From contig NZ_JAGGLM010000021.1 in the NCBI RefSeq assembly GCF_017874415.1, forward strand, positions 1 to 38,245: a DNA stretch of 38,245 nt, written 5' to 3'. The position numbers and the translations under genes are program-made. This DNA comes from Clostridium algifaecis. Lineage in GTDB: Bacteria; Bacillota; Clostridia; Clostridiales; Clostridiaceae. This document shows positions 14,350 through 28,426 of this stretch, piece after piece (position 1 is the stretch's first letter; every line of letters starts with the position of its first letter). The notes beneath the pieces were generated by a model that did not search any database, was not told the DNA's origin, and was given only the letters and a program-made list of their open reading frames with translations.

Positions 14350-15753
14350 ATGAACATTTTCAAGAAGAAATCGCTTGATCAATTGAAAGACAGTATTGAA
14401 AAAACAGGTTTAAAGAAAAATCTCAAGGCTAGGGACATAGCTGCACTTGGTATTGGGGCCGTTGTTGGAGTTGGAATTTTTGTAGCAACAGGAGAAGGAG
14501 CACATGCGGCAGGTCCTGGAATTATAGTTTCGTTTATACTATGTGGTATAGTAGCCGCTCTATGTGGTTTATGTTATTGTGAACTTGCAACTATGTTTCC
14601 TGTAGCAGGGAGTACATATTCATATTCTTATATTGCCTTTGGAGAATTTGTGGCAATGATCATAGGATGGTGTTTGACAGCTGAATATTCGGTTGCAGTT
14701 AGTGCAGTTGCATCTGGATGGTCTGGAACCTTCAGAGGTATACTCCAGAATGCAGGAATCACACTTCCACATGCTATTTGTGCATCACCCAGCAAAGGTG
14801 GAATAATAGATTTGCCAGCTGTCATTATAATACTAATTTTAGCGGGTCTTTTATATTATGGAATGCACGAAAGTGCAAGAGTAAATGATGTAATTGTTGT
14901 TATAAAGATATTTGTAATACTGCTATTTGTTTTTCTTGGAGTATCACATATAAAAGTATCTAATTATACACCATTTATGCCTTTTGGATGGAAGGGAGTT
15001 TTTACAGGAGCGAGTACAGTATTTTTCTCATATATAGGATTTGATTCCATTTCCACTGCAGCTGAAGAAGCAGAAAATCCAGGAAAAGATGTGTCAAGGG
15101 GAATTATAATGTGCCTTATAGCAGTTAGTGTACTTTATGTGTCTGTGGCTGTTGTACTTACTGGAATGGTTCCATTTAGAGAAATAGTCTCAGAAAATGC
15201 TGTACCTGCCGCACTTTCAAGAGTTGGAATAAATTGGGGCTCAGCACTTGTAGGTGTTGGGGCAATTCTAGGAATGATTTCTACAATGATTGCCATGCTT
15301 TATGGACAAATTAGAATATTTATGGTTATGTCACGAGATGGACTACTTCCTAAAGCTTTTTCAAAAATTCATAAGGTACATAAAACTCCATATGTCTCTA
15401 CTATAATAACAGCTATAATAGCTTCGGTAATAGCAGGACTTCTGCCGCTGGATATTATTGTAGAATTTTTGAGTATAGGTACATTGCTAAGTTTCATGGT
15501 TGTTTCACTAGGTGTTATATATCTTAGAAAAACCATGCCGAATTTTGATAGGAAGTTTAAATGTCCTGGAGTACCATTTACTCCTATAATAACTGTGTTA
15601 TGCTGCTTAGTACTTTTAGTATCAATGCGTGCAATAACATGGATAGGATTTTGTGTATGGCTTGCTATAGGAATAATATTTTATTTTGTTTATGGAAGAA
15701 CTCACAGCGTTATCCAAAATGAAAAATTAGATGAAGATTCTCATAGTGCATAA
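14350..15753 (+). CDS. APC-family amino-acid permease (copy 1)
   Basis: This 467-residue membrane protein has about 12 hydrophobic segments and belongs to the amino acid-polyamine-organocation superfamily (cationic amino-acid transporter/YfnA-like branch). The first membrane segment carries 'GIGAVVGVGIFVATGEGA', the substrate-binding unwound helix of the superfamily, and 'FFSYIGFDSISTAAEEAENP' is the conserved helix VI region. It is followed 14 bases later by a near-identical paralog of the same length. Transport of an amino acid or amine is well supported, but the specific substrate is not. The position beside 4-hydroxybutyrate genes makes GABA-like compounds worth testing, by inference only. 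Confidence 0.85.
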   Translation: MNIFKKKSLDQLKDSIEKTGLKKNLKARDIAALGIGAVVGVGIFVATGEGAHAAGPGIIVSFILCGIVAALCGLCYCELATMFPVAGSTYSYSYIAFGEFVAMIIGWCLTAEYSVAVSAVASGWSGTFRGILQNAGITLPHAICASPSKGGIIDLPAVIIILILAGLLYYGMHESARVNDVIVVIKIFVILLFVFLGVSHIKVSNYTPFMPFGWKGVFTGASTVFFSYIGFDSISTAAEEAENPGKDVSRGIIMCLIAVSVLYVSVAVVLTGMVPFREIVSENAVPAALSRVGINWGSALVGVGAILGMISTMIAMLYGQIRIFMVMSRDGLLPKAFSKIHKVHKTPYVSTIITAIIASVIAGLLPLDIIVEFLSIGTLLSFMVVSLGVIYLRKTMPNFDRKFKCPGVPFTPIITVLCCLVLLVSMRAITWIGFCVWLAIGIIFYFVYGRTHSVIQNEKLDEDSHSA

Positions 15754-15767
15754 AGGGGAGAAAACTT

Positions 15768-17171
15768 ATGAATATTTTCAAAAAGAAATCGATTGAACAG
15801 TTAATGAAAAGTGTAGAAAGAACAGATTTAAAAAAGAATCTAAGAGCAAGGGATATAGCAGCTTTAGGAATAGGTGCTGTAGTCGGAGTTGGAATTTTTG
15901 TAGCAACTGGAGAGGGTGCCCATGCAGCAGGCCCTGGAATTATACTTTCTTTTGTATTAGCAGGAATAGTAGCATGCCTCTGTGGTTTATGTTACTGTGA
16001 GCTTGTAACTATGTTTCCTGTATCAGGAAGCACCTATTCATATTCTTATATTGCCTTTGGGGAATTTGTGGCAATGATTATTGGGTGGTGTTTAACTGCT
16101 GAATATTCAGTTGCAGCTAGTGCTATTGCATCTGGATGGTCTGGAACGCTTAGAGGTATACTGCAGAATGCAGGAATTACGCTGCCACATGCTATTACTA
16201 CATCACCTAGTAAAGGTGGAATAATAGATTTACCAGCTGTTCTTGTGATATTAATTTTAACTGCGCTTCTATGCTATGGAATGAGTGAAAGTGCAAGAGT
16301 AAATGATATCATTGTTGGCGTAAAGATATTTATAATACTTTTATTTATTGTACTTGGAGTATCACATATAAAAATTTCTAATTACACACCGTTTATGCCT
16401 TTTGGATGGAAGGGAGTTTTTACAGGAGCAAGTACAGTATTCTTTTCATTTTTAGGTTTTGATGCAATTGCTACATCAGCAGAGGAAGCTGTAAATCCTA
16501 AAAAAGATGTATCAAGAGGAATTATAATGTGTCTTATAGTTGTTTGTCTACTCTATGTTTCGGTAGCAGTAGTACTTACTGGAATTGTCCCTTATAATGA
16601 AATAGTTTCAGATAATGCTGTTCCAGCATCGCTTGCAAGGATTGGTATTAACTGGGGTTCTGCAATTGTGGGTGTTGGAGCAATTCTAGGAATGATTTCT
16701 AGCATGATTGCCGTTTTATATGGACAAATCAGAGTATTTATGGCTATGTCGCGAGATGGATTACTTCCAAAGATATTTTCAAAAATTCATAAGACTCATA
16801 AAACTCCATATATAGCTACTGTAACAGCTGGCATAATAGCAGCTTCTATAGCTGGATTTTTACCACTTGATATTATTGTAGAGTTTGTTAGTATAGGTAC
16901 ACTGTTAAGTTTTATGGTTGTATCTTTTGGAGTTATATACCTTAGAAAAGCTATGCCAGAGATAGAAAGAAAATTTAAATGCCCTTGGGTACCATTTACT
17001 CCGATAATAACCATATTGTGCTGTCTGGCTCTTTTGGTATCAATGCGTGAAATAACATGGATAGGATTCTGTGTATGGCTTGCTATAGGTATGCTGATTT
17101 ATTTTACTTATGGAAGAACTCATAGTGTTGTTCAAAATGAAAATTTAGATAGAGGTTCGCATAGTGCATAG
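15768..17171 (+). CDS. APC-family amino-acid permease (copy 2)
   Basis: It has the same length (467 residues) and architecture as the preceding permease, and most residues are identical by eye, so this is a tandem duplication. Differences concentrate in helix VI (FSFLGFDAIATSAEEAVNP against FSYIGFDSISTAAEEAENP in copy 1) and in a few membrane segments, which could tune specificity. The N- and C-terminal tails (MNIFKKKS and a final SHSA) are conserved in both. The ATG follows AGGGGAG. The pair ends at a strong terminator, so it is transcribed apart from the downstream sigma-54 operon. Confidence 0.85.
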   Translation: MNIFKKKSIEQLMKSVERTDLKKNLRARDIAALGIGAVVGVGIFVATGEGAHAAGPGIILSFVLAGIVACLCGLCYCELVTMFPVSGSTYSYSYIAFGEFVAMIIGWCLTAEYSVAASAIASGWSGTLRGILQNAGITLPHAITTSPSKGGIIDLPAVLVILILTALLCYGMSESARVNDIIVGVKIFIILLFIVLGVSHIKISNYTPFMPFGWKGVFTGASTVFFSFLGFDAIATSAEEAVNPKKDVSRGIIMCLIVVCLLYVSVAVVLTGIVPYNEIVSDNAVPASLARIGINWGSAIVGVGAILGMISSMIAVLYGQIRVFMAMSRDGLLPKIFSKIHKTHKTPYIATVTAGIIAASIAGFLPLDIIVEFVSIGTLLSFMVVSFGVIYLRKAMPEIERKFKCPWVPFTPIITILCCLALLVSMREITWIGFCVWLAIGMLIYFTYGRTHSVVQNENLDRGSHSA

Positions 17172-17230: not shown

Positions 17231-17348
17231 TGTTGCAAAATAGAAATAAAATGCAGATTGGCAACAGAATAGATATTTATTATATTTTATAAAATAACTA
17301 GTGAAGTAGTGGCTTTTATATAAAAATGATTGTTGCATTAATGCAGCA
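17231..17348. promoter_or_regulatory. Putative activator sites (TGTTGCA elements) of the acyl-reductase operon
   Basis: TGTTGC (17231-17236) and GCAACA (17261-17266) form a spaced inverted pair. A second, compact near-palindrome at 17331-17348 reads TGTTGCA-TTAA-TGCAGCA. They lie about 50-170 bases upstream of the -24/-12 promoter, where bacterial enhancer-binding proteins usually bind. The same heptamer occurs upstream of the second sigma-54 operon, so these are probably sites of the activator encoded at 21714-23156. The assignment is inferred. Confidence 0.6.
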
Positions 17349-17398
17349 TATATAGTAAAAAATTATGCATATTATGATTTTATGGGCTTATAAAACAG

Positions 17399-17414
17399 TG
17401 GTATGATAATTGCT
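17399..17414 (+). promoter_or_regulatory. Sigma-54 (-24/-12) promoter of the ACP-ligase-luxE-luxC operon
   Basis: The sequence TGGTATG-ATAA-TTGCT matches the sigma-54 consensus TGGYRYRN4TTGCW at every position, with the invariant GG and GC spaced correctly. The predicted start is near 17425, giving a short leader to the ATG at 17452. Confidence 0.88.
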
Positions 17415-17451
17415 TTTCATATATATAAATAAACTTTTAGGAGGAAATGCT

Positions 17452-17694
17452 ATGAAGAATTTAGATAAATTCAATAAAATAATTTGTGATAATTTAAATA
17501 TAAAAAATATAAATGATATTACTGATGATATGGGTCCAGATGAAATAAAAGATTGGGATTCATTGGCTCATGTAGAACTTGTCGCTGCTCTTGAAGATGA
17601 ATTTGGAATAAATCTTGATGTGGTAGATATATCTAAAATGTACACTATAGGAGATGTGAAAAAAATATTAGGAAAATACGGCATAGAAATATGA
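17452..17694 (+). CDS. Acyl carrier protein
   Basis: This 80-residue acidic helical protein carries the phosphopantetheine attachment motif in 'WDSLAHVEL', with Ser37 as the modified residue. It probably holds an acyl group as a thioester for the neighbouring ligase and LuxC/LuxE-like enzymes. A longer reading from 17410 would overlap the -12 element; ATG 17452 with AGGAGGAA about seven bases upstream is the clear start. Its stop overlaps the next start (ATGA). It is a dedicated carrier rather than the fatty-acid synthase ACP, judging by its operon and the absence of fab genes. Confidence 0.88.
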   Translation: MKNLDKFNKIICDNLNIKNINDITDDMGPDEIKDWDSLAHVELVAALEDEFGINLDVVDISKMYTIGDVKKILGKYGIEI

Positions 17695-19160
17695 CATTTA
17701 CAGATTATATATTTAAAGAATCTAAAAAGTTAGAAAAAACAGCTGTAATAGGCAGGGAGGAAGTAAGTTATATTGAAATATATGAAAGAATAAATTTTAT
17801 AACCATGCTATTGCAGAAAAAGAATTATTCGAAAGAAGATAGTGTACTTATAATATCAGATAATTCTACTTTTTTTATTGAAACATATTTTGGAATTATT
17901 AAGAATGGAAGTATATGTGTGCCGCTCAATCCAGCAATAAATGTAAACGATATAAAATACATTATATCAATTTTGAATATAAAAATGATATTCTGCCAGA
18001 AAAAGCATATAAACAAAATAAAAGGTTTAATTGATAATAGTATAGAGGTTTATAATGAGGACAGTGTAAAACGATCAGATGTAGAAGCACAGTTAAATAA
18101 ATCTATTGACATAAAAGGAGATACAGCATTAATCATGTTTACATCTGGTTCTACATCTAAGCCTAAAGGAGTAATGCTGACTCATTATAATTTAATGTAC
18201 AATACAGACTCCATAATAAAATATTTGAAGTTAACACAAAAAGACAGAATAGAAGTTGTACTTCCTTTTTATTATTGCTATGGGACATCCCTTTTAAATA
18301 CACATTTTAAGGTTGGAGGAAGCATAGTTATAAATAACAAATTCATGTTTCCACAAACTGTAATAGAGGATATTAATAAATACAATTGTACAGGCTTTGC
18401 AGGAGTTCCCAGTACTTATCAGATACTGCTCAGGATGACAAATCTTAAAGAATCGCAATTGCCATCTTTAAGATATGTAACTCAGGCAGGCGGAAGACTT
18501 CCAGAAGTTTTTATAACTGAACTCTGCAGTGCTCTTAAAGATATAGATATATATATTATGTATGGACAAACTGAGGCTACTGCAAGATTATCTTACCTTC
18601 CGCCTGAAAATATCAAGAATAAATTAGGTTCTATAGGAAAAGGCATTCCTGGAACAGAACTTGTGATAGTAAATAAAGAAGGAAAGCCAGTTAAAGTAGG
18701 TCAAGTTGGAGAAGTGGTTGCCAAAGGTGGAAATATAATGAAAGGTTATTTTAATGACAGCCAAGAAACTAAAAAAGTACTTAAAAATGGTATGCTTTAT
18801 ACTGGAGATTTAGCAGTGAAAGATGAAGAAGGATATATATATATAGTTTCTAGAGAAAAAAATATAATAAAAAGTGGCGGAAATAGGATAAGCCCAAAAG
18901 AAATAGAAAATGTAATATCTGAAATAAAAGAAGTGGTAGAGTGTGCAGTTATCGGTGTAGAAGATGATATTTTGGGCGAGGCTGTAAAAGCTTTTGTAGT
19001 TTTAAAGGAGAATAATTCAAATATAAATTCTAAATATATATTTAGGTATTGTATGGATAGACTGCCTAGATATAAGGTACCTAAATACGTAAAGTTTTTA
19101 AAATCTCTTCCAAAGAATTCATCGGGAAAAGTATTATTTAAAGAATTAAAGAATATATAA
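17691..19160 (+). CDS. AMP-forming acyl-CoA/acyl-ACP ligase
   Basis: This 489-residue member of the ANL adenylating superfamily activates a carboxylic acid as acyl-AMP and passes it to a thiol, here probably the ACP encoded just upstream. The P-loop-like motif 'FTSGSTSKPKGVMLTHYN' is at about 149-166. 'YGQTEAT' is the A5 motif, 'TGDLAVKDEEGYIYIVSR' the hinge region, 'GGNRISPKEIE' the A8 motif, and the catalytic lysine is Lys480 in 'SSGKVLFKEL'. All key residues are present. The four-base overlap with the ACP gene implies coupled translation. The acid substrate is unknown. Confidence 0.88.
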   Translation: MTFTDYIFKESKKLEKTAVIGREEVSYIEIYERINFITMLLQKKNYSKEDSVLIISDNSTFFIETYFGIIKNGSICVPLNPAINVNDIKYIISILNIKMIFCQKKHINKIKGLIDNSIEVYNEDSVKRSDVEAQLNKSIDIKGDTALIMFTSGSTSKPKGVMLTHYNLMYNTDSIIKYLKLTQKDRIEVVLPFYYCYGTSLLNTHFKVGGSIVINNKFMFPQTVIEDINKYNCTGFAGVPSTYQILLRMTNLKESQLPSLRYVTQAGGRLPEVFITELCSALKDIDIYIMYGQTEATARLSYLPPENIKNKLGSIGKGIPGTELVIVNKEGKPVKVGQVGEVVAKGGNIMKGYFNDSQETKKVLKNGMLYTGDLAVKDEEGYIYIVSREKNIIKSGGNRISPKEIENVISEIKEVVECAVIGVEDDILGEAVKAFVVLKENNSNINSKYIFRYCMDRLPRYKVPKYVKFLKSLPKNSSGKVLFKELKNI

Positions 19161-19185
19161 TAATAAAATGAAACAGGTGATGTAT

Positions 19186-20298
19186 ATGGAAATAAAACAT
19201 TTAATAGATGATATAGTATTAAATGACCAGTTTCGAGTATTTCAAAATGAAAAGGAAAAAGCTCTACTTGAAATTATTAAAATCCAATTAGAAAAAAATT
19301 TAGTTAATGAAAATATAAATTCTATGTACAAAAAGTTTGATATAGACATATCAAATATTTCAAATTTAGTTGACGTTCCTTTTATACCTGTAAATATGTT
19401 TAAAAAATTTGAACTTTTAACCTGTAAAAAAGATAATATAACAAGAGTATTGAATTCTAGTGCTACAACTACTGGAATACCAAGTAAAATTTATTTGGAT
19501 AGAACCACATCAATACATCAATCACAAGCTTTAATAGCTACATTAACAAGTTTTTTGGGAAGAAACAGAAGACCACTTTTGATTTTAGATACGGAAAGTG
19601 TTAATAAAAACAAGGGCAATTTAAGTGCAAGAGGAGCAGCTATTAGGGGAGTAAGTAATTTTGCAAGCAGCATAACTTATATAATGGATGAGAAAAATGG
19701 AAGCCTGGAAATAAATAAATTGAAACTTAAGGAATTTGAAAAAAAGAACAAAGATAAAGAAATATTGGTATATGGTTTTACGTATATAATATGGAGTAAA
19801 TTCATTAGAGCTTTGGAAAAAGATAATATTAAGTTGTCACTACCTAATATGAAACTGCTTCACAGCGGTGGATGGAAAAAGCTTGTATCAGAAAAAGTTG
19901 AAAAAGAAGAATTTAATAGAAGATGCGCACGTGTTTTTGGAACTAAAAAAGAAAATATTATGGATTTTTACGGAATGGTAGAACAAGTAGGTGTTGTTTT
20001 TGTAGATTGTGAATGTGGCTATAAACATGTGCCTGATTTTGCAGATATTATAATAAGAGATTTTAATACCATGGAAGAAGTAAATCCTGGAGAGACCGGG
20101 ATGATTGAAGTTATGAGTATTTTAGGTTCAAGCTATCCAGCACAGGCTATATTAACAGAGGATGTAGGAGAATTAGTAGGAATAGATGATTGTAAATGCG
20201 GAAGACGTGGCAAATATTTTAAATTTAAATCTAGAGTAGAAAAATCTGAAATTAGAGGATGTGGAGATACTTTTGCAGAAAGGGAGAATTTCACATGA
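19186..20298 (+). CDS. LuxE-like acyl-protein synthetase
   Basis: This 370-residue protein resembles LuxE, the synthetase of the bioluminescence fatty-acid reductase, which forms acyl-AMP, acylates itself on a C-terminal cysteine and hands the acyl group to LuxC. An ATP-binding 'NSSATTTGIPSK' lies at about 90-101, 'YGMVEQVG' mirrors the ANL A5 motif, and Cys359 in 'RGCGDTF' matches the position of the acyl-accepting cysteine near the LuxE end (Cys364 in the luminous enzymes, from memory). Two CxCG motifs (CECG, CKCG) are also present. I chose ATG 19186 because AGGTGAT is well spaced before it; an in-frame ATG at 19168 lacks one. No luciferase genes are nearby. Confidence 0.85.
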   Translation: MEIKHLIDDIVLNDQFRVFQNEKEKALLEIIKIQLEKNLVNENINSMYKKFDIDISNISNLVDVPFIPVNMFKKFELLTCKKDNITRVLNSSATTTGIPSKIYLDRTTSIHQSQALIATLTSFLGRNRRPLLILDTESVNKNKGNLSARGAAIRGVSNFASSITYIMDEKNGSLEINKLKLKEFEKKNKDKEILVYGFTYIIWSKFIRALEKDNIKLSLPNMKLLHSGGWKKLVSEKVEKEEFNRRCARVFGTKKENIMDFYGMVEQVGVVFVDCECGYKHVPDFADIIIRDFNTMEEVNPGETGMIEVMSILGSSYPAQAILTEDVGELVGIDDCKCGRRGKYFKFKSRVEKSEIRGCGDTFAERENFT

Positions 20299-21584
20299 TA
20301 ACTTGCCATTCATTAAATGGGAATATATATGATAATGGAATAAATTTTAAAGATTTCAAAGATATAATTGGCACTTTAAAATCAAATTGGAAAATATTAA
20401 ATTTGATACCTGTTCAAGCTATTATTCTAATATTTGATGAATACAGCAGGAGGCTTAGCAGAGACAAACAGCTTCTTAAAATAGAAGGAGTGCCTTATCT
20501 TTCATTTTATTTTAAAAAGTCAAATTTAGAAAAATTGATAAACATTAGTTTAAAGGATAAAAAGTATTTAAACGAATTTGTATATGAAGAAGATGGAAAG
20601 CTTATAAAAGCGCAGGGAAGAGGAATCGCCTGTCATTGGATAGCCGGGAATATAGATACTTTGGCATTTTATTCTGTCTTTCAAGCCATTATAGCTAAAA
20701 ATTCTAATTTAGTAAGGGTACCTAAAAAAAATATTCAAATAGTAGCAAGACTATTAAAATGTCTGGACAATATAGAAGTAAATTATGAAAATAAAATCTA
20801 TTATTCAAAAGATATATTGAAGAATATTTGTTTGATTTACTTTGATAGTACAGACGAATTATTAAATAAAGAAATGTCATTTGCAGCTGATGCAAGGATT
20901 GTATGGGGAGGAGAAGAAGCTGTAAATTATATTGTAAAGCTCCCTAAAAAAACTACATGTAAAGATGTGATTTTTGGTCCTAAGTATTCTTTTGCAGTAT
21001 TTGACAAAGATATTATAGAAGGGGACGAATGCCAGAAATATATAGAAAAATTTGTTATGGACATAATTACTTTTAACCAGAAGGCTTGTTCTTCACCTCA
21101 GGTATTATTTGTTGAAAAAAGCAGCATACCACTTGAAAAAACTGTAAAAATGATAGGCGAAGCTTTTAAAAAAATAGAAAAAAGATATAAAAATGTTGTA
21201 GATGAAGCTACTGTTGCAAGGATTATAAATGAGAGAGGAATATATAGTCTTAGTTTAGATAAACAAATTTATTGCAGTAAAGGATTGAATTATACTATTT
21301 TAATTAATAATGATATAGTACTAGAAGAACCCGTAGGAGGCAGATGTATTTTTGTTAAAGAAGTAAATAGTATATTTGATGTAGAAAATTTAATTAATAG
21401 AAGGATACAAACTTTGGGTTTTGCTATTAAAGATAAATCAAAAATGTTAAAGTTTGCAGATATGGTTACAACTCTTGGGGTGGACAGAGTTGTAAGTGTA
21501 GGAATCATGAATATCTATGATTCACCGTGGGACGGTTGCTTTATTGTAAATGAACTTGTGAGATGGTGCAGTATAAATATTTAA
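20295..21584 (+). CDS. LuxC-like acyl-CoA/acyl-protein reductase
   Basis: This 429-residue protein of the LuxC family, within the aldehyde-dehydrogenase superfamily, would reduce an acyl thioester to an aldehyde with NAD(P)H. The nucleophile is probably Cys265 in 'FNQKACSSPQVLF'. 'GRGIACHWIAGNIDTLAFYS' and 'WGGEEAVNYIVKLP' are further LuxC-like segments. An upstream in-frame ATG (20259) lies inside luxE and adds an unrelated tail; ATG 20295 has AGGGAG eight bases upstream and overlaps the luxE stop as ATGA. It is the last gene of the operon, and a strong terminator follows at once. The physiological substrate is not known. Confidence 0.88.
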   Translation: MITCHSLNGNIYDNGINFKDFKDIIGTLKSNWKILNLIPVQAIILIFDEYSRRLSRDKQLLKIEGVPYLSFYFKKSNLEKLINISLKDKKYLNEFVYEEDGKLIKAQGRGIACHWIAGNIDTLAFYSVFQAIIAKNSNLVRVPKKNIQIVARLLKCLDNIEVNYENKIYYSKDILKNICLIYFDSTDELLNKEMSFAADARIVWGGEEAVNYIVKLPKKTTCKDVIFGPKYSFAVFDKDIIEGDECQKYIEKFVMDIITFNQKACSSPQVLFVEKSSIPLEKTVKMIGEAFKKIEKRYKNVVDEATVARIINERGIYSLSLDKQIYCSKGLNYTILINNDIVLEEPVGGRCIFVKEVNSIFDVENLINRRIQTLGFAIKDKSKMLKFADMVTTLGVDRVVSVGIMNIYDSPWDGCFIVNELVRWCSINI

Positions 21585-21587
21585 CTG

Positions 21588-21633
21588 AATTGCAGAGGAG
21601 ATATAAAAATATATTTCTTCTGCAATTTTTTTA
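21588..21633 (+). terminator. Rho-independent terminator of the acyl-reductase operon
   Basis: A 17-bp stem with two G-U pairs (arms 21588-21604 and 21611-21627, around AATTGCAGA/TCTGCAATT) is followed directly by a T-run. It separates the operon from the regulator gene. Confidence 0.92.
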
Positions 21634-21713: not shown

Positions 21714-23156
21714 GTGGAAAATAAAAAAATATCGGAATCTTTAAAATTAAGTGATGAATATACAAAAGGATTACAGATAGAAACGAGTCGTTTATATGAT
21801 ATTATAGAATGTTCTTATGATGGCATATATATAACTGATGGTGAAGCCAATACTATATTCCTTAATAAATCTTATGAAAAAATTACTGGAATGAAACGAA
21901 AAGAAATGATTGGAAAGAATATGAAATGCCTTGAAAAAAACGGATTTATTTCTAAATCAGCTACACTTATGGTTTTAAAAAGCAGGGAAAGTGTTACAAT
22001 TGAACAAAAATTCAAAACAGGAAAAAAAGTAGTTGTTTCCGGCAGCCCAATTTTTGATGATAAGGGCAATATAACCATGGTAGTTACAAATGTGCGTGAT
22101 GTTACGGAATTGTACGAATTGAAGGAACAGCTGGAAAAGAATAGAGAACTTACTGAAAAATATTATTCACAGGTAGAGGCTATGAGAAAACAGCTCTTGA
22201 ATTTTTCCGATATAGTAGTCAAAGATGAAAGAATGCTTAATATATTAGAAATGGTAAGAAAGGTAGCAAAGCTGGATACAACAGTACTTTTGCTTGGAGA
22301 AACTGGTGTTGGAAAAGAAAGAATAGCTAAATATGTACATAAAAATAGCAAAAGAAGCAAAAAGAGTTTTATAAAAATAGACTGTGGAGCAATACCTTAT
22401 AATCTTATAGAATCAGAATTGTTTGGATATGAAAAGGGAGCATTTACAGGTGCAAATAAAGAAGGAAAAATTGGTCTTTTTGAATTAGCTGATGGAGGTA
22501 CGATTTTTTTAGATGAAGTTGGAGAACTACCTTTAGATATGCAGGTGAAATTACTAAGAGTGCTCCAGGAAGGAGAAATTAAGAAGGTAGGAGGAAATAC
22601 TACCATTAAAGTTGATGTTAGAGTAATTGCAGCTACTAACAGAAATTTAAAAGAAATGATAAAAAACAAGACATTCAGGGAAGATCTGTATTACCGCTTG
22701 AATGTAGTGCCTATCAGAATTCTACCACTTAGGGAGAGAACGGGAGATATAGAACCTCTTATAGATCATTTTTTGAGTATGTTTAACAAAAAATATGACT
22801 TTAATAAGTCTATAACGCGTGGAGCTATAGATTCTTTAAAAGCATATTCATGGCCGGGAAATGTCAGAGAATTAAAAAACATAATAGAGAGAGCTATAAT
22901 TATGAGCCCGGGAGATAAAATACTCAGAAGTGATATACCTATTAATGAAGTATGGAATAATAGATCTCAATTTAAAATAGTTGATAAAAAAGTAAATATG
23001 AAAGAAGAAGTTGAAAAATTGGAAGAAAGGTTAATAGAAAATGCATTCGCAAAGTATGGTAATGTACGAGATGCTGCTGCTGAACTTGGTATAAATGCGT
23101 CCACTTTAGTTAGAAAAAGAAAAAGGTATAGAAATAAAAATATGTTGCAAAAATAA
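21714..23156 (+). CDS. PAS-domain sigma-54-dependent transcriptional activator
   Basis: This 480-residue bacterial enhancer-binding protein starts with a PAS sensor domain (about residues 25-130), joined by a helical linker to an AAA+ domain. Walker A GETGVGKE is at 195-202, the sigma-54-contacting loop GAFTGA at about 242-247 and Walker B 'GGTIFLDEVGELP' at about 260-272. The DNA-binding helix-turn-helix is at about 452-474 (VRDAAAELGINASTLVRKRK). There is no receiver domain, so it probably senses a small molecule directly. GTG 21714 follows AAAGGGGG. It sits between two operons with -24/-12 promoters and is the obvious candidate to activate both. Confidence 0.92.
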   Translation: MENKKISESLKLSDEYTKGLQIETSRLYDIIECSYDGIYITDGEANTIFLNKSYEKITGMKRKEMIGKNMKCLEKNGFISKSATLMVLKSRESVTIEQKFKTGKKVVVSGSPIFDDKGNITMVVTNVRDVTELYELKEQLEKNRELTEKYYSQVEAMRKQLLNFSDIVVKDERMLNILEMVRKVAKLDTTVLLLGETGVGKERIAKYVHKNSKRSKKSFIKIDCGAIPYNLIESELFGYEKGAFTGANKEGKIGLFELADGGTIFLDEVGELPLDMQVKLLRVLQEGEIKKVGGNTTIKVDVRVIAATNRNLKEMIKNKTFREDLYYRLNVVPIRILPLRERTGDIEPLIDHFLSMFNKKYDFNKSITRGAIDSLKAYSWPGNVRELKNIIERAIIMSPGDKILRSDIPINEVWNNRSQFKIVDKKVNMKEEVEKLEERLIENAFAKYGNVRDAAAELGINASTLVRKRKRYRNKNMLQK

Positions 23157-23257: not shown

Positions 23258-23365
23258 TATTGATAATTATATAAATAAAAATTCAAGTGTGTTTTAAAAA
23301 ATATACATTGTATTTACGTTGTAAATGCAGGTATATTTTTTATTTAACTTAAAATAAGTACAAGT

Positions 23366-23381
23366 TGGCATCAATATTGCT
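23366..23381 (+). promoter_or_regulatory. Sigma-54 (-24/-12) promoter of the 4-hydroxybutyrate operon
   Basis: TGGCATC-AATA-TTGCT matches the sigma-54 consensus TGGYRYRN4TTGCW at all but the seventh position, with GG at 23367-23368 and GC at 23379-23380 exactly 12 bases apart. The predicted start near 23392 gives a leader of about 43 bases to the abfD ATG. Confidence 0.88.
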
Positions 23382-23434
23382 ACATATGTAAGTAAGAAGA
23401 TAAAAAAATTATATTTTTGAAAGGAATGATTTTA

Positions 23435-24892
23435 ATGTCTTTAATGACAGGGGAAGAATATGTAGAAAGTTTAAGAAAGTTAAAATTAAATGTTTATTTG
23501 TTAGGAGAAAAAATAGACAACCCAGTAGATAATCCAATACTTCGTCCATCTCTTAATTCAGTTAAGATGACTTATGATTTAGCACAAATGCCAGAATATG
23601 AAGATTTAATGACTGTAAAATCAAGTCTTACAGGTAAAAAAATAAATAGATTTGCCAATTTACATCAAAGCACAGAGGATTTAGTTAAGAAGGTTAAAAT
23701 GCAAAGATTATGTGGTCAGAAGACTGCTGCATGTTTCCAAAGATGTGTTGGTATGGATGCTTTTAATGCAACATTTAGTACTACTTATGAAATAGATAAA
23801 GAACATAATACAAACTATCACGAAAACTTTAAGAATTTTTTAAAGTATGTTCAAGAAAACGATTTAGTAGTAGATGGTGCTATGACAGATCCTAAAGGAG
23901 ATAGAGGATTATCACCAAGTAAACAAGTTGATCCAGATTTATATTTAAGAGTTGTTGAAAGAAGACCGGATGGAATAGTAGTAAGAGGAGCAAAAGCTCA
24001 TCAAACAGGTATATGTAATTCTCATGAAGTACTAGTTATGCCAACTATTGCAATGAGACCAGAAGATAAAGATTATGCAGTAGCATTTGCAATACCAACA
24101 GATACAAAAGGAATAACAATGATAGTTGGTAGACAATCATGTGATACTAGAAAAATTGAAGAAGATGCAGATATAGATGTAGGTAACAAAGAATTTGGAG
24201 GAGTAGAAGCTTTAACAGTATTTGACGATGTATTTGTACCAAATGACAGAATCTTCTTAAATGGTGAAACTGAGTTCGCAGGAATGTTAGTCGAAAGATT
24301 TGCAGGATATCATAGACAAAGTTATGGTGGATGCAAAGTTGGAGTTGGTGACGTATTAATAGGAGCTGCTGCAGTTGCTGCTGAATATAATGGAGCTGCA
24401 AAAGCATCACATATAAAAGACAAATTAATAGAAATGATGCACTTGAATGAAACACTATATGCTTGTGGAATTGCATGCTCAGCTGAAGGATATCCAACAA
24501 AAGCAGGAAACTACCAGATAGATTTATTATTAGCTAATGTATGTAAACAAAATGTAACAAGATTCCCATATGAAATAGTAAGATTGGCAGAAGATATAGC
24601 TGGAGGACTTATGGTTACTATGCCATCTGAAAAAGATTTCCATAGCCCTGTTACTGGAAAATATGTATCAAAATATTTAGTAGGAGTAGCATCTGTACCA
24701 GTAGAAGATAGAATGAAGATATTGAGATTACTTGAAAATCTATGCCTTGGTACAGCAGCAGTTGGTTATAGAACTGAATCAATGCATGGTGCAGGTTCAC
24801 CACAGGCACAAAGAATAATGATATCAAGACAGGGAAATTTGAGACAGAAAAAGGCACTGGCAAAAGCTATAGCTAGAATAAAAGAGGATTAA
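23435..24892 (+). CDS. abfD: 4-hydroxybutyryl-CoA dehydratase / vinylacetyl-CoA isomerase
   Basis: This enzyme dehydrates 4-hydroxybutyryl-CoA to crotonyl-CoA by a ketyl-radical mechanism using FAD and a [4Fe-4S] cluster, as in C. aminobutyricum and C. kluyveri. The protein (485 residues) is plainly homologous throughout. The cluster ligands known from C. aminobutyricum (Cys99, Cys103, His292, Cys299) correspond to Cys100 and Cys104 in 'ACFQRC' and to the His and Cys of 'GYHRQSYGGC' (about 293 and 300). The region after 'TMPSEKDF' is a few residues shorter than in C. aminobutyricum. ATG 23435 follows AAAGGA with a 9-base spacer; an in-frame TTG at 23417 has no good site. It is the first gene after a sigma-54 promoter. 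Confidence 0.96.
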   Translation: MSLMTGEEYVESLRKLKLNVYLLGEKIDNPVDNPILRPSLNSVKMTYDLAQMPEYEDLMTVKSSLTGKKINRFANLHQSTEDLVKKVKMQRLCGQKTAACFQRCVGMDAFNATFSTTYEIDKEHNTNYHENFKNFLKYVQENDLVVDGAMTDPKGDRGLSPSKQVDPDLYLRVVERRPDGIVVRGAKAHQTGICNSHEVLVMPTIAMRPEDKDYAVAFAIPTDTKGITMIVGRQSCDTRKIEEDADIDVGNKEFGGVEALTVFDDVFVPNDRIFLNGETEFAGMLVERFAGYHRQSYGGCKVGVGDVLIGAAAVAAEYNGAAKASHIKDKLIEMMHLNETLYACGIACSAEGYPTKAGNYQIDLLLANVCKQNVTRFPYEIVRLAEDIAGGLMVTMPSEKDFHSPVTGKYVSKYLVGVASVPVEDRMKILRLLENLCLGTAAVGYRTESMHGAGSPQAQRIMISRQGNLRQKKALAKAIARIKED

Positions 24893-24946: not shown

Positions 24947-25225
24947 ATGAAAGAAAAGATATTAGAAGTAATTGATAAAAAAATAAGACCTTATTTAAGA
25001 AGCCATAAGGGAGATGTTGAACTCCTTGACATAGAAGATGGAGTTGTGAGAATAAGACTTTTAGGACAGTGTAGTGGATGTATATCTGCAGATTACACAG
25101 TAAAGGATGTAATTGAAACTTCTTTGAAAGAAAAAATTCCACAAATAAAAAAAGTTGAACTTGTAAATTGTATGAGTGAAGAAACTTTAGATATGGCAAG
25201 AAAAATATTAGGCCGAAATTCATAA
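24947..25225 (+). CDS. NifU-like C-terminal domain protein
   Basis: This 92-residue protein is a stand-alone NifU C-terminal (Nfu-type) domain, a family that carries or delivers Fe-S clusters. The cluster-binding CxxC is Cys42-Ser-Gly-Cys45 in 'GQCSGCISADYTVKD'. The N-terminus 'VIDKKIRPYLRSHKGDVELL' matches the family start. ATG 24947 follows AGAGGTG. Its place directly after the [4Fe-4S] enzyme AbfD suggests it helps assemble or repair that cluster, by inference from position. Confidence 0.85.
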   Translation: MKEKILEVIDKKIRPYLRSHKGDVELLDIEDGVVRIRLLGQCSGCISADYTVKDVIETSLKEKIPQIKKVELVNCMSEETLDMARKILGRNS

Positions 25226-25236
25226 GGTGATATGAT

Positions 25237-25503
25237 TTGGATATAGGAATAAAATATTGTGGAGGATGTAATCCAAAATACGATAGAAAAAAATTTGTTC
25301 ATAGATTAGAGAAAAATTCAAATTTTAATTTTGAAATAGCTGATTTTAATAAAGTTTATGATGTAGTTATAGTTTTATGCGGGTGTAATAGTGCTTGTGT
25401 AAATCATAAAGAGCTTAAATTTAAATTGGAAAAAATATTAGTTAGATCTCAAAAGGACTATTATGAGGTTAAGCAAATATTAGATAAATACTCTTGTATA
25501 TAA
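25237..25503 (+). CDS. Cys-rich small protein of unknown function
   Basis: This 88-residue protein starts at TTG 25237 with AAGGTGAT upstream. It opens with 'YCGGCNPKYDR' (Cys8, Cys11), has a second cluster 'LCGCNSACVNH' (Cys48, Cys50, Cys54) and a Cys at position 87. The pattern suggests metal or Fe-S binding, or redox chemistry. I do not recognise a named family. It lies between the NifU-like gene and the CoA-transferase in the abfD operon, so a role in Fe-S handling for AbfD is plausible but unproven. Confidence 0.7.
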   Translation: MDIGIKYCGGCNPKYDRKKFVHRLEKNSNFNFEIADFNKVYDVVIVLCGCNSACVNHKELKFKLEKILVRSQKDYYEVKQILDKYSCI

Positions 25504-27064: not shown

Positions 27065-28426
27065 ATGGCTTTTAAAAGAGAAGAAGGGAAAGAACAACCA
27101 TATACACCAGCGGGCCCCTTTAAGATACGTATCCCGGGAATTCATTACAGATTTGAAGTATCAGATTATATTCAAGGACTTTTAATGTGTGCAGTATGTC
27201 TTGCAGCAATTCCTATGCTTCAGCAGTATCTTGGAATGCCTTTCAATGTTGCTTTGGCTATTGTTACACTTAATGGAATACTTTATTGTGCCCATGTATT
27301 TTTAGGTGATCCTGTTGTACCAGGATGGGTTACACCAGCTATACCACTCTTAATGTTATATGTTAGTACTTATCCTATGGGACCAGAGAGAGTACAAGCG
27401 TTGATTGCATTTGAGATGAGCTTAGGTATATTGGCTGCATTTTTAGGTATTACTGGACTTGGAAAGAAAGTAATTTTATTGGTTCCAAGTGCCATGCAGG
27501 CTGGAATAATATTGGGAGCTGGATTAGCAGCTGTAAATACTGTATTTGGAAAAGGTGGAAAGTTTGAAAATTACCCTTGGACTATTACTATATGTATAGG
27601 TTTGGGATTCTATCTATTATTTTCAAATCAATTTAAGAGTATTAGAAATAAGAATAAACTACTTCAAGTGATTTCTAACTTGGGTGTTTTACCTGTTATG
27701 ATATTAGCAGTAATTATTGGACCTATTGTAGGTGAAACTATACTGCCTACTATTAAATGGGGATTTTCACAACCAGCATATGCTGAACTCTGGAGTAAAT
27801 GGACATTTTGGAATATAGGTTTTCCGTCAGTTAAGATGTTTATAAATGCTATTCCTATGGTTTTCTCAGCATATATAATACTATTTGGCGAAATGATTCA
27901 AGCACAAGCACTATTAGAGGATGCAGGGAAAGTACGTAAAGATGAAATTATAGATTATAACCCTAATAGAACTCACTTGATATTTGGATTACGTAATATA
28001 ATAATGTCAGTTATAGGACCAGATATAACAATGTGTGGACCACTTTGGGCAGCAATGCAGGTTGTTGTTTGTGACAGGTATAAACATGGAAGAAAAGCTA
28101 TGGATTCTATAAATGGAGGTGCAGCTTCATTTAGATTTGGTACTCTAACTGGATACTTCCTTTTACCTATAGTTACTCTTGTTACTCCTATACTTAATAT
28201 AGCAATGGCACTAACAATGTTGATACAAGGATATGTTTCAGTTAGAATAGGAGTGTTAAAGGCACGTACTATGAATGATCTTGGGATTGCAGGAATCATG
28301 GCAGCTGTAATTATAGCAAAAGGAGCAGCTTGGGGACTTGCAGTAGGTATAGTATTATGCTTGTTAATATTACTTGGAAATAAAAAAGAATATGATGTTA
28401 ATGTTTTTAAAGAAGAGAATGCATAA
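27065..28426 (+). CDS. NCS2-like (SLC23) membrane transporter
   Basis: This 453-residue protein has about 12 membrane segments. It resembles a divergent branch of the nucleobase/ascorbate (NCS2, solute carrier 23) family. The segments 'LVPSAMQAGIILGAGLAAV' and 'VIGPDITMCGPLWAA' occupy the places of the family's substrate-binding helices, but classical uracil/xanthine motifs are not obvious. ATG 27065 follows AAGGAG. It lies downstream of the 4-hydroxybutyrate operon on the same strand across a 245-base gap that holds an inverted repeat, and I saw no sigma-54 promoter of its own. Transport of 4-hydroxybutyrate or a related carboxylate is an inference from place. Confidence 0.7.
   Translation: MAFKREEGKEQPYTPAGPFKIRIPGIHYRFEVSDYIQGLLMCAVCLAAIPMLQQYLGMPFNVALAIVTLNGILYCAHVFLGDPVVPGWVTPAIPLLMLYVSTYPMGPERVQALIAFEMSLGILAAFLGITGLGKKVILLVPSAMQAGIILGAGLAAVNTVFGKGGKFENYPWTITICIGLGFYLLFSNQFKSIRNKNKLLQVISNLGVLPVMILAVIIGPIVGETILPTIKWGFSQPAYAELWSKWTFWNIGFPSVKMFINAIPMVFSAYIILFGEMIQAQALLEDAGKVRKDEIIDYNPNRTHLIFGLRNIIMSVIGPDITMCGPLWAAMQVVVCDRYKHGRKAMDSINGGAASFRFGTLTGYFLLPIVTLVTPILNIAMALTMLIQGYVSVRIGVLKARTMNDLGIAGIMAAVIIAKGAAWGLAVGIVLCLLILLGNKKEYDVNVFKEENA

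What the first reader, a model, noticed from the sequence alone, without database searches (positions are those of the whole stretch)
17399..21584. Luciferase-free lux-type acid reductase with its own carrier protein and ligase
Seen: four coupled genes encode an ACP (Ser37), an AMP-forming ligase (Lys480), a LuxE-like synthetase (Cys359 at the acyl-accepting position) and a LuxC-like reductase (Cys265), with ATGA overlaps at two junctions and a strong terminator. Known: LuxC and LuxE reduce fatty acids to aldehydes in luminous bacteria, fed by LuxD. Inferred: here LuxD and luciferase are replaced by an ACP-ligase pair, making a self-contained, protein-tethered route from a carboxylic acid to an aldehyde in an anaerobe. 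No alcohol dehydrogenase adjoins it. I know of no described system with this composition and sigma-54 control beside 4-hydroxybutyrate genes.
Basis: partly seen in the sequence, partly recalled or inferred. Interest (0 to 1): 0.85.

Follow-up and report, generated by a model that had tools for sequence, protein, structure and literature searches.

The report
Carrier-protein acid reductase beside 4-hydroxybutyrate genes
Many Clostridium relatives carry a four-gene set that probably turns a carboxylic acid into an aldehyde on a carrier protein, next to genes for fermenting 4-hydroxybutyrate; the gene set is real and conserved, but it has already been listed in print and what it makes has not been shown.

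Summary
In detail: ACP (Ser37), AMP-forming ligase (Lys480), LuxE (Cys359 from the second start) and LuxC (Cys265), two ATGA overlaps, a strong terminator, a sigma-54-type promoter, and 4-hydroxybutyrate genes downstream. It is not chance. Forty-three of 206 Clostridiaceae genomes hold the cassette with all four catalytic residues; 41 of these also carry 4-hydroxybutyryl-CoA dehydratase (Fisher p 2e-33), within 10 kb in 36. The claim that no such system is described fails: Nie et al. 2019 (PMC6615313, Table 1) list acp-caiC-luxEC with abfD-nifU-hyp-ach-golB as one predicted sigma-54 regulon (activator XanR), and similar gene sets are described in flagellin-glycosylation islands. New here: ACP/ligase-linked LuxEs form one clade, while 22 of 22 Clostridiaceae LuxE loci read outside it lack both; LuxE and LuxC are fused in three genomes; both operons share sigma-54 promoters and, in part of the genomes, an enhancer word. 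Best reading: an acid loaded on ACP passes to LuxE and is reduced by LuxC. The substrate is unproven; a C4 acid is a guess from context. In eight related genomes the ligase frame changes at a conserved A9 run, yet the gene stays under purifying selection.

The parts
17231..17336 (.). Three copies of the word TGTTGC/GCAACA (17231, 17261, 17331), putative activator (XanR-type) sites
   Evidence: Word enriched upstream of ACP: 45 copies in 43 regions against shuffled mean 5.1, max 11; but present in only 20 of the 43 regions
17398..17414 (+). Sigma-54-type -24/-12 promoter GTGGTATGATAATTGCT of the cassette
   Evidence: 10 of 12 consensus letters; a match of 9 or more lies upstream of ACP in 39 of 43 cassettes against 1.5% of shuffled regions
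17452..17694 (+). Acyl carrier protein, Ser37 in WDSL
   Evidence: PF00550 25.4 bits; Ser in 43 of 43
17691..19160 (+). AMP-forming acid ligase (ANL family), Lys480; stands where Nie et al. have caiC
   Evidence: PF00501/PF13193; Lys in 43 of 43
19186..20298 (+). LuxE-type acyl-protein synthetase, Cys359 (alternative start 19168)
   Evidence: PF04443 220 bits; 7xc6_E; Cys in 43 of 43
20295..21584 (+). LuxC-type acyl-thioester reductase, Cys265
   Evidence: PF05893 236 bits; 7xc6_A; Cys in 43 of 43
21587..21632 (+). Intrinsic terminator of the cassette
   Evidence: -22.8 kcal/mol, z -7.07
21714..23156 (+). PAS-AAA-Fis sigma-54 activator; corresponds to XanR of PMC6615313 by its linked operons
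   Evidence: PF00158, PF13426, PF02954; an activator of this label in 42 of 43 cassette stretches, a more distant one in L065
23143..23257 (.). Three further TGTTGC/GCAACA words (23143, 23161, 23252)
   Evidence: Upstream of AbfD: 55 copies in 38 regions against shuffled mean 6.1, max 12; present in 27 of the 38
23365..23381 (+). Sigma-54 promoter TTGGCATCAATATTGCT of the 4-hydroxybutyrate operon
   Evidence: 12 of 12 consensus letters
23417..24892 (+). 4-hydroxybutyryl-CoA dehydratase/vinylacetyl-CoA isomerase (AbfD)
   Evidence: 836 bits to 1u8v; Cys99, Cys103, His292 and Cys299 of 1u8v are kept in the printed alignment (their role as cluster ligands is recalled)
24947..25225 (+). NifU-like protein
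   Evidence: PF01106 90.8 bits
25237..25503 (+). Small Cys-rich CGGCN protein; stands where the published operon has 'hyp'
   Evidence: Sequence read; a homologue in L043 has no Pfam match; on one ORF with a dehydratase-type domain in L066 and L118, same layout read in L116
25494..26819 (+). 4-hydroxybutyrate CoA-transferase (AbfT)
   Evidence: 3eh7 587 bits, 3gk7 557 bits
27065..28426 (+). Hydrophobic protein, putative transporter; stands where 'golB' is in the published operon (identity not verified)
   Evidence: No Pfam or NCBIfam match; hydrophobic stretches seen by eye

Best explanation
The four genes make an ACP-dependent carboxylic acid reductase. The ligase adenylates an acid and loads it on the phosphopantetheine of the dedicated ACP (inferred from family and residues). 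LuxE takes the acyl group on its C-terminal Cys and hands it to Cys265 of LuxC, which reduces it with NAD(P)H to an aldehyde (inferred from the Lux system; the partnership is supported by gene fusions). A XanR-type activator and sigma-54 switch it on together with AbfD-NifU-CGGCN-AbfT (supported by promoters and, in part of the genomes, a shared word). The substrate is most likely a short acid of the 4-hydroxybutyrate/crotonate pathway; this last step is a guess from context.
For: All four catalytic residues in 43 of 43 loci, in 11 genera and at 23-80% identity to the window proteins. Order ACP-ligase-LuxE-LuxC on one strand in 42 of 43; L066 has ACP-LuxE-LuxC-ligase. ACP/ligase-linked LuxEs lie in one clade of 53 rows (100/98) and the 22 Clostridiaceae LuxE loci read outside it lack both genes in the 12-20 kb read, so ACP and ligase go with this LuxE subtype. 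LuxE-LuxC fusions in L109, L110, L115. AbfD in 41 of 43 cassette genomes against 7 of 163 others, p 2e-33 (not corrected for shared ancestry). Sigma-54 promoters on both operons and the shared word.
Against: No biochemistry was found. LuxE keeps its own adenylation-like motifs (SSATTTG..PSK, DFYGMVEQ, TED.G), so it may activate acid itself, making the ACP step redundant or separate. The ACP match to Pfam is weak (25 bits). Related cassettes sit in surface-sugar or flagellin clusters, so the cassette is not specific to C4 acids. AbfD occurs without the cassette in 7 genomes. The shared word is missing from 23 of 43 ACP regions. L111 holds a LuxE of the clade without ACP or ligase in its 18 kb; the same contig has both about 8 kb from that LuxE. 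ATP-driven reduction of a C4 acid costs more than the CoA routes (recalled).
Confidence: 0.55

Rival explanations
1. LuxE and LuxC reduce a free acid on their own, as in luminous bacteria; the ligase-ACP pair is a second, separate activation that feeds a modification step (MaoC/FabA-type dehydratase) or another product.
For: LuxE keeps adenylation-like motifs; MaoC-type genes labelled in 13 of 43 stretches (Pfam for three of them) and a dehydratase-type domain joined to CGGCN in L066 and L118.
Against: 22 of 22 LuxE loci read outside the clade lack ACP and ligase, while 43 of 43 cassettes have them; a purely parallel role would not predict such strict pairing. No MaoC gene stands beside the cassette in the window.
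Confidence: 0.22
2. The cassette serves butyrate-to-butyraldehyde/butanol production, in line with the label 'Butyrate/Butanol synthesis' that Nie et al. gave the regulon.
For: Published label; AbfD and AbfT lead to crotonyl-CoA (recalled); in L039 a thiolase (Pfam) and ORFs that look like acyl-CoA dehydrogenase and Etf (N-termini read by eye) follow the cassette.
Against: The label comes from gene context; the paper's section on butyrate and alcohols does not mention these genes and its six EMSA fragments do not include this promoter. Butyryl-CoA can be reduced without ATP (recalled).
Confidence: 0.15
3. The cassette substitutes for SucD and makes succinic semialdehyde for 4-hydroxybutyrate dehydrogenase.
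For: The window genome has no SucD match at E 1e-70 but three 4hbD-type genes; SucD in 13 of 41 AbfD+cassette genomes against 5 of 7 AbfD-only.
Against: That difference is not significant (p 0.086). 13 genomes have both, and 17 of 41 have neither SucD nor 4hbD at a cut of 480 bits (three of the 17 have a 4hbD match of 438-462 bits), so there the semialdehyde would lack this partner.
Confidence: 0.06

Closest known systems
XanR sigma-54 regulon, abfD-nifU-hyp-ach-golB and acp-caiC-luxEC (Nie, Dong, Yang 2019, PMC6615313; abstract, sections 6, 7, 9, 11 and found passages read)
   Same: Same genes, same two operons, same kind of activator, in Clostridium
   Different: A predicted regulon with a label; the parts read give no mechanism, substrate or test for this cassette. 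Its supplementary tables could not be read here.
Flagellin glycosylation islands of Aeromonas (PMC7874193) and Enterobacteriaceae (PMC4875605) (found passages read)
   Same: ACP, AMP-dependent synthetase/CaiC, LuxE and LuxC in one island; the word luciferase does not occur in PMC7874193 (not checked in PMC4875605)
   Different: Also hold a 3-oxoacyl-ACP reductase and sugar genes; linked to flagella, not to 4-hydroxybutyrate
Lux fatty acid reductase (LuxC-LuxE, PDB 7xc6)
   Same: LuxE and LuxC families by sequence, both Cys positions aligned
   Different: No luciferase-family gene in the genome; far below the NCBIfam equivalog cut-offs (80.8 of 550; 103.5 of 750); own ACP and ligase
Carboxylic acid reductases of the adenylation-carrier-reductase type (recalled)
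   Same: Works like: acid activated, tethered to a phosphopantetheine arm, reduced to aldehyde
   Different: Separate proteins, a LuxC-type reductase and a LuxE Cys relay; membership not tested and not claimed

Membership tests
XanR regulon cassette (acp-caiC-luxEC) | Gene content and order of both operons | tested here: met
   against Table 1; the identity of 'golB' and 'hyp' with the window genes was not verified
XanR regulon cassette (acp-caiC-luxEC) | Sigma-54 promoter and shared upstream activator site | tested here: met
   In the window both operons have both; across genomes the word is in 20 of 43 and 27 of 38 regions; the published motif was not seen
XanR regulon cassette (acp-caiC-luxEC) | Activator binds and activates both operons | not testable with these tools
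   Needs binding or expression data
LuxE family (PF04443) | Profile match and C-terminal acyl-carrying Cys | tested here: met
   220 bits; Cys aligned with 7xc6_E Cys364; 43 of 43
LuxE of luminous bacteria (NCBIfam NF052244 equivalog) | Score above 550 | tested here: not met
   80.8 bits
LuxC family (PF05893) | Profile match and catalytic Cys | tested here: met
   236 bits; 43 of 43
LuxC of luminous bacteria (NCBIfam NF052251 equivalog) | Score above 750 | tested here: not met
   103.5 bits
Lux bioluminescence system | Luciferase LuxAB | tested here: not met
   No PF00296 match in the genome, control rang in 10 of 14
Lux bioluminescence system | LuxD transferase | tested here: inconclusive
   No PF02273 match, but no control genome rang
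ACP | PP-binding profile and phosphopantetheine Ser | tested here: met
   25.4 bits over 20.8; Ser in 43 of 43
4-hydroxybutyryl-CoA dehydratase | Close match to 1u8v with Cys99, Cys103, His292, Cys299 kept | tested here: met
   836 bits, printed alignment
Acid reductase activity | Aldehyde made from acid via ACP | not testable with these tools
   Needs enzymes

The most novel reading that the evidence does not exclude
A carrier-protein-tethered acid reductase has been built into 4-hydroxybutyrate fermentation: the acid rides from ligase to ACP to LuxE-Cys to LuxC-Cys and leaves as a C4 aldehyde (such as 4-hydroxybutyraldehyde, towards 1,4-butanediol), with LuxE working as an ATP-free relay. 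In one genus the ligase is made only by recoding at a conserved A9 run, which would tune the flux.
Probability: 0.12. Interest if true: 0.72.

Novelty: new member of a known kind. Interest (0 to 1): 0.42.

Why it matters
A four-protein, ACP-tethered acid reductase in anaerobes would be a natural design for aldehydes and alcohols, and would explain why 41 of the 43 clostridial genomes that have it also hold the 4-hydroxybutyrate dehydratase. The same cassette type sits in flagellin and surface-sugar clusters, so one set of enzyme assays could settle the chemistry of all of them. As a gene set it is already in print; the open question is its substrate and product.

Tried and rejected
Cassette as a strict replacement of SucD: not significant (p 0.086), and 17 of 41 genomes lack both SucD and 4hbD at 480 bits. 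Two separate origins of the 4-hydroxybutyrate link: the LuxE trees place L066, L116 and L118 on the side of the polysaccharide-type cassettes, but a single clade is not rejected (AU p 0.262) and the ligase tree has the 4-hydroxybutyrate cassettes on one side, weakly (32/88), so I do not claim it. Substrate from the ligase's nearest solved structures: too mixed (gramicidin synthetase, feruloyl-, oxalate-, malonyl-CoA ligases) to say. Structure prediction was not run, as it returns no coordinates with which to judge pocket size.

Limits of the counts. Of 68 full-length LuxE matches, 65 were read; G106 and two further copies in G146 were not fetched, and 7 partial matches (profile positions 266-381) were dropped. 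The class search drew 391 genomes evenly, not the whole class; its 11 strong outside matches were fetched, 12 weaker outside ones (under 160 bits) were not read. L112 and L117 are cut by contig ends, so LuxC is partly or not readable there. In one search the 'other' rows include the window itself, lack L088 for LuxE and three loci for LuxC. The 480-bit cut for SucD and 4hbD was chosen after seeing the scores. The null shuffles two-base blocks, not a strict dinucleotide shuffle. The tree warns of joined long branches and is rooted at the midpoint.
Full report
What is there. The window is contig C21 of a 2.96 Mb genome. Four genes run 17452-21584: ACP, AMP-forming ligase, LuxE, LuxC. The ACP/ligase and LuxE/LuxC junctions are ATGA overlaps. 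A 19-bp hairpin followed by a T run ends the unit. Then come a PAS sigma-54 activator (21714-23156), AbfD, a NifU-like protein, a small CGGCN protein, AbfT and a hydrophobic protein.

Is it more than chance. The LuxE profile matched 68 of 206 Clostridiaceae genomes. I read the surroundings of 65 of the 68 full-length matches. Forty-three, in 43 genomes and 11 genera, carry all four cassette genes, in the order ACP-ligase-LuxE-LuxC in 42 and ACP-LuxE-LuxC-ligase in L066. Ser37, Lys480, the LuxE Cys and the LuxC Cys are kept in 43 of 43. A sigma-54 promoter (at least 9 of 12 consensus letters) lies upstream of ACP in 39 of 43 (one of them, L063, at -247; misses L053, L065, L066, L068) and upstream of AbfD in 37 of 38 (miss L065), against about 1.5% of shuffled regions. 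The word TGTTGC/GCAACA is enriched before both operons: 45 copies against 5.1 expected and 55 against 6.1; but it is present in only 20 of 43 ACP regions and 27 of 38 AbfD regions, so the site has drifted or differs in part of the genomes. Three copies precede each operon in the window. This supports one activator over both.

Link to 4-hydroxybutyrate. AbfD is found in 48 of 206 genomes; 41 of the 43 cassette genomes have it (exceptions G038 and the fragmented G083) and 7 genomes have AbfD alone (p 2e-33, not corrected for ancestry). The two lie within 10 kb in 36 of 41. In G125 (L097) the cluster runs on into genes that I label Cat1, SucD and 4hbD from their arrangement (names recalled; SucD and 4hbD checked by Pfam only as aldehyde dehydrogenase and iron alcohol dehydrogenase families). 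In G119 (L107) a 4hbD-type gene and a class III aminotransferase stand by. Seventeen of 41 have neither SucD nor 4hbD at my cut (14 if the three weaker 4hbD matches are counted), so the cassette does not depend on them.

Relation to other LuxE-LuxC genes. Twenty-two further LuxE loci of the same family lack ACP and ligase in the stretches read; in 20 of them a LuxC-labelled ORF follows LuxE, in two an unlabelled ORF of about 875-880 residues does. In a tree of 76 LuxEs the ACP/ligase-linked ones lie in one clade of 53 rows (100/98; long-branch warnings, midpoint root). It splits in two. One side holds 41 Clostridiaceae cassettes and L117. The other, 11 rows, holds seven from outside clusters (L109-L115), L068, and three cassettes with AbfD (L066, L116, L118), which share the order ACP-LuxE-LuxC-ligase. 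Split transketolase and SDR genes were confirmed by Pfam in L111 and L068, a ThDP enzyme in L109; ORFs of the same look stand in L113-L115 (by eye); in L112 only 6 kb could be read. L068 lies a few kb from two flagellin genes. LuxE and LuxC are one protein in L109, L110 and L115. One row, L111, has no ACP or ligase in its own 18 kb, but the first cassette of the same genome lies about 8 kb from its LuxE. So this looks like a portable ACP-dependent acid-reducing set of which the 4-hydroxybutyrate version is one use.

How it probably works. Shown: genes, residues, conservation, promoters, pairing of ACP and ligase with this LuxE subtype, LuxE-LuxC fusion. Inferred: the ligase charges ACP, LuxE relays, LuxC reduces to an aldehyde. 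Guessed: a C4 acid. Against it: LuxE retains its own adenylation-like motifs, the class of acid is unknown, and related cassettes occur away from AbfD.

What is known. PMC6615313 (Table 1) gives XanR: abfD-nifU-hyp-ach-golB, acp-caiC-luxEC, 'Butyrate/Butanol synthesis', Clostridium. In the main text abfD, caiC and luxE each occur once, in that table, and the six EMSA fragments do not include this promoter. PMC7874193 and PMC4875605 describe ACP, AMP ligase, LuxE and LuxC in flagellin islands (passages read). Ten searches of the open-access library listed no paper that I recognised from its title as a biochemical study of such a cassette; several lists were capped, and most papers of subscription journals are absent from that library.

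Verdict. What remains open is the chemistry, which simple assays would settle.

Noticed in passing
L046, L050, L051, L056, L058, L063, L067, L069 (ligase gene, about codon 34): In 8 of 12 cassettes of one genus (g6) the ligase frame changes at a conserved A9 run; the first frame ends after 40 codons in all 8, yet the downstream frame stays open for 430 or more codons with pairwise pN/pS 0.13-0.23, as in the 4 uninterrupted relatives (0.16-0.20) that lack the run. The 8 genes differ by up to 23% of bases, so this looks like kept recoding or transcriptional slippage rather than decay; assembly error is not excluded.
   Followed up: partly
window 25237-25503; L066:11466-12236; L116:10867-11625; L118:13698-14450; L097:14085-15662: A small Cys-rich CGGCN protein follows NifU in the AbfD operon; it is carried on one ORF with a MaoC- or FabA-type domain (L066, L118 by Pfam; L116 by phmmer label and N-terminus) or, it appears, with AbfT (L097), suggesting a role with AbfD or its cluster.
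   Followed up: partly
L109-L115 and L068: ACP-ligase-LuxE-LuxC type genes beside split transketolase, SDR or ThDP-enzyme genes (Pfam in L111, L068, L109; by eye in L113-L115), in L068 near two flagellin genes: possibly an aldehyde condensed by a ThDP enzyme into a surface sugar or flagellin modification.
   Followed up: partly
window 27065-28426: A hydrophobic 453-residue protein without a Pfam or NCBIfam match, its homologue labelled in 16 of 43 cassette stretches; a candidate importer for the pathway.
   Followed up: no
window 14350-17171: Two adjacent, similar amino acid permease genes lie directly upstream of the cassette (both by Pfam; the first BcaP-like but below the NCBIfam cut-off); no sigma-54 promoter was found in the 400 bases before the first.
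   Followed up: no
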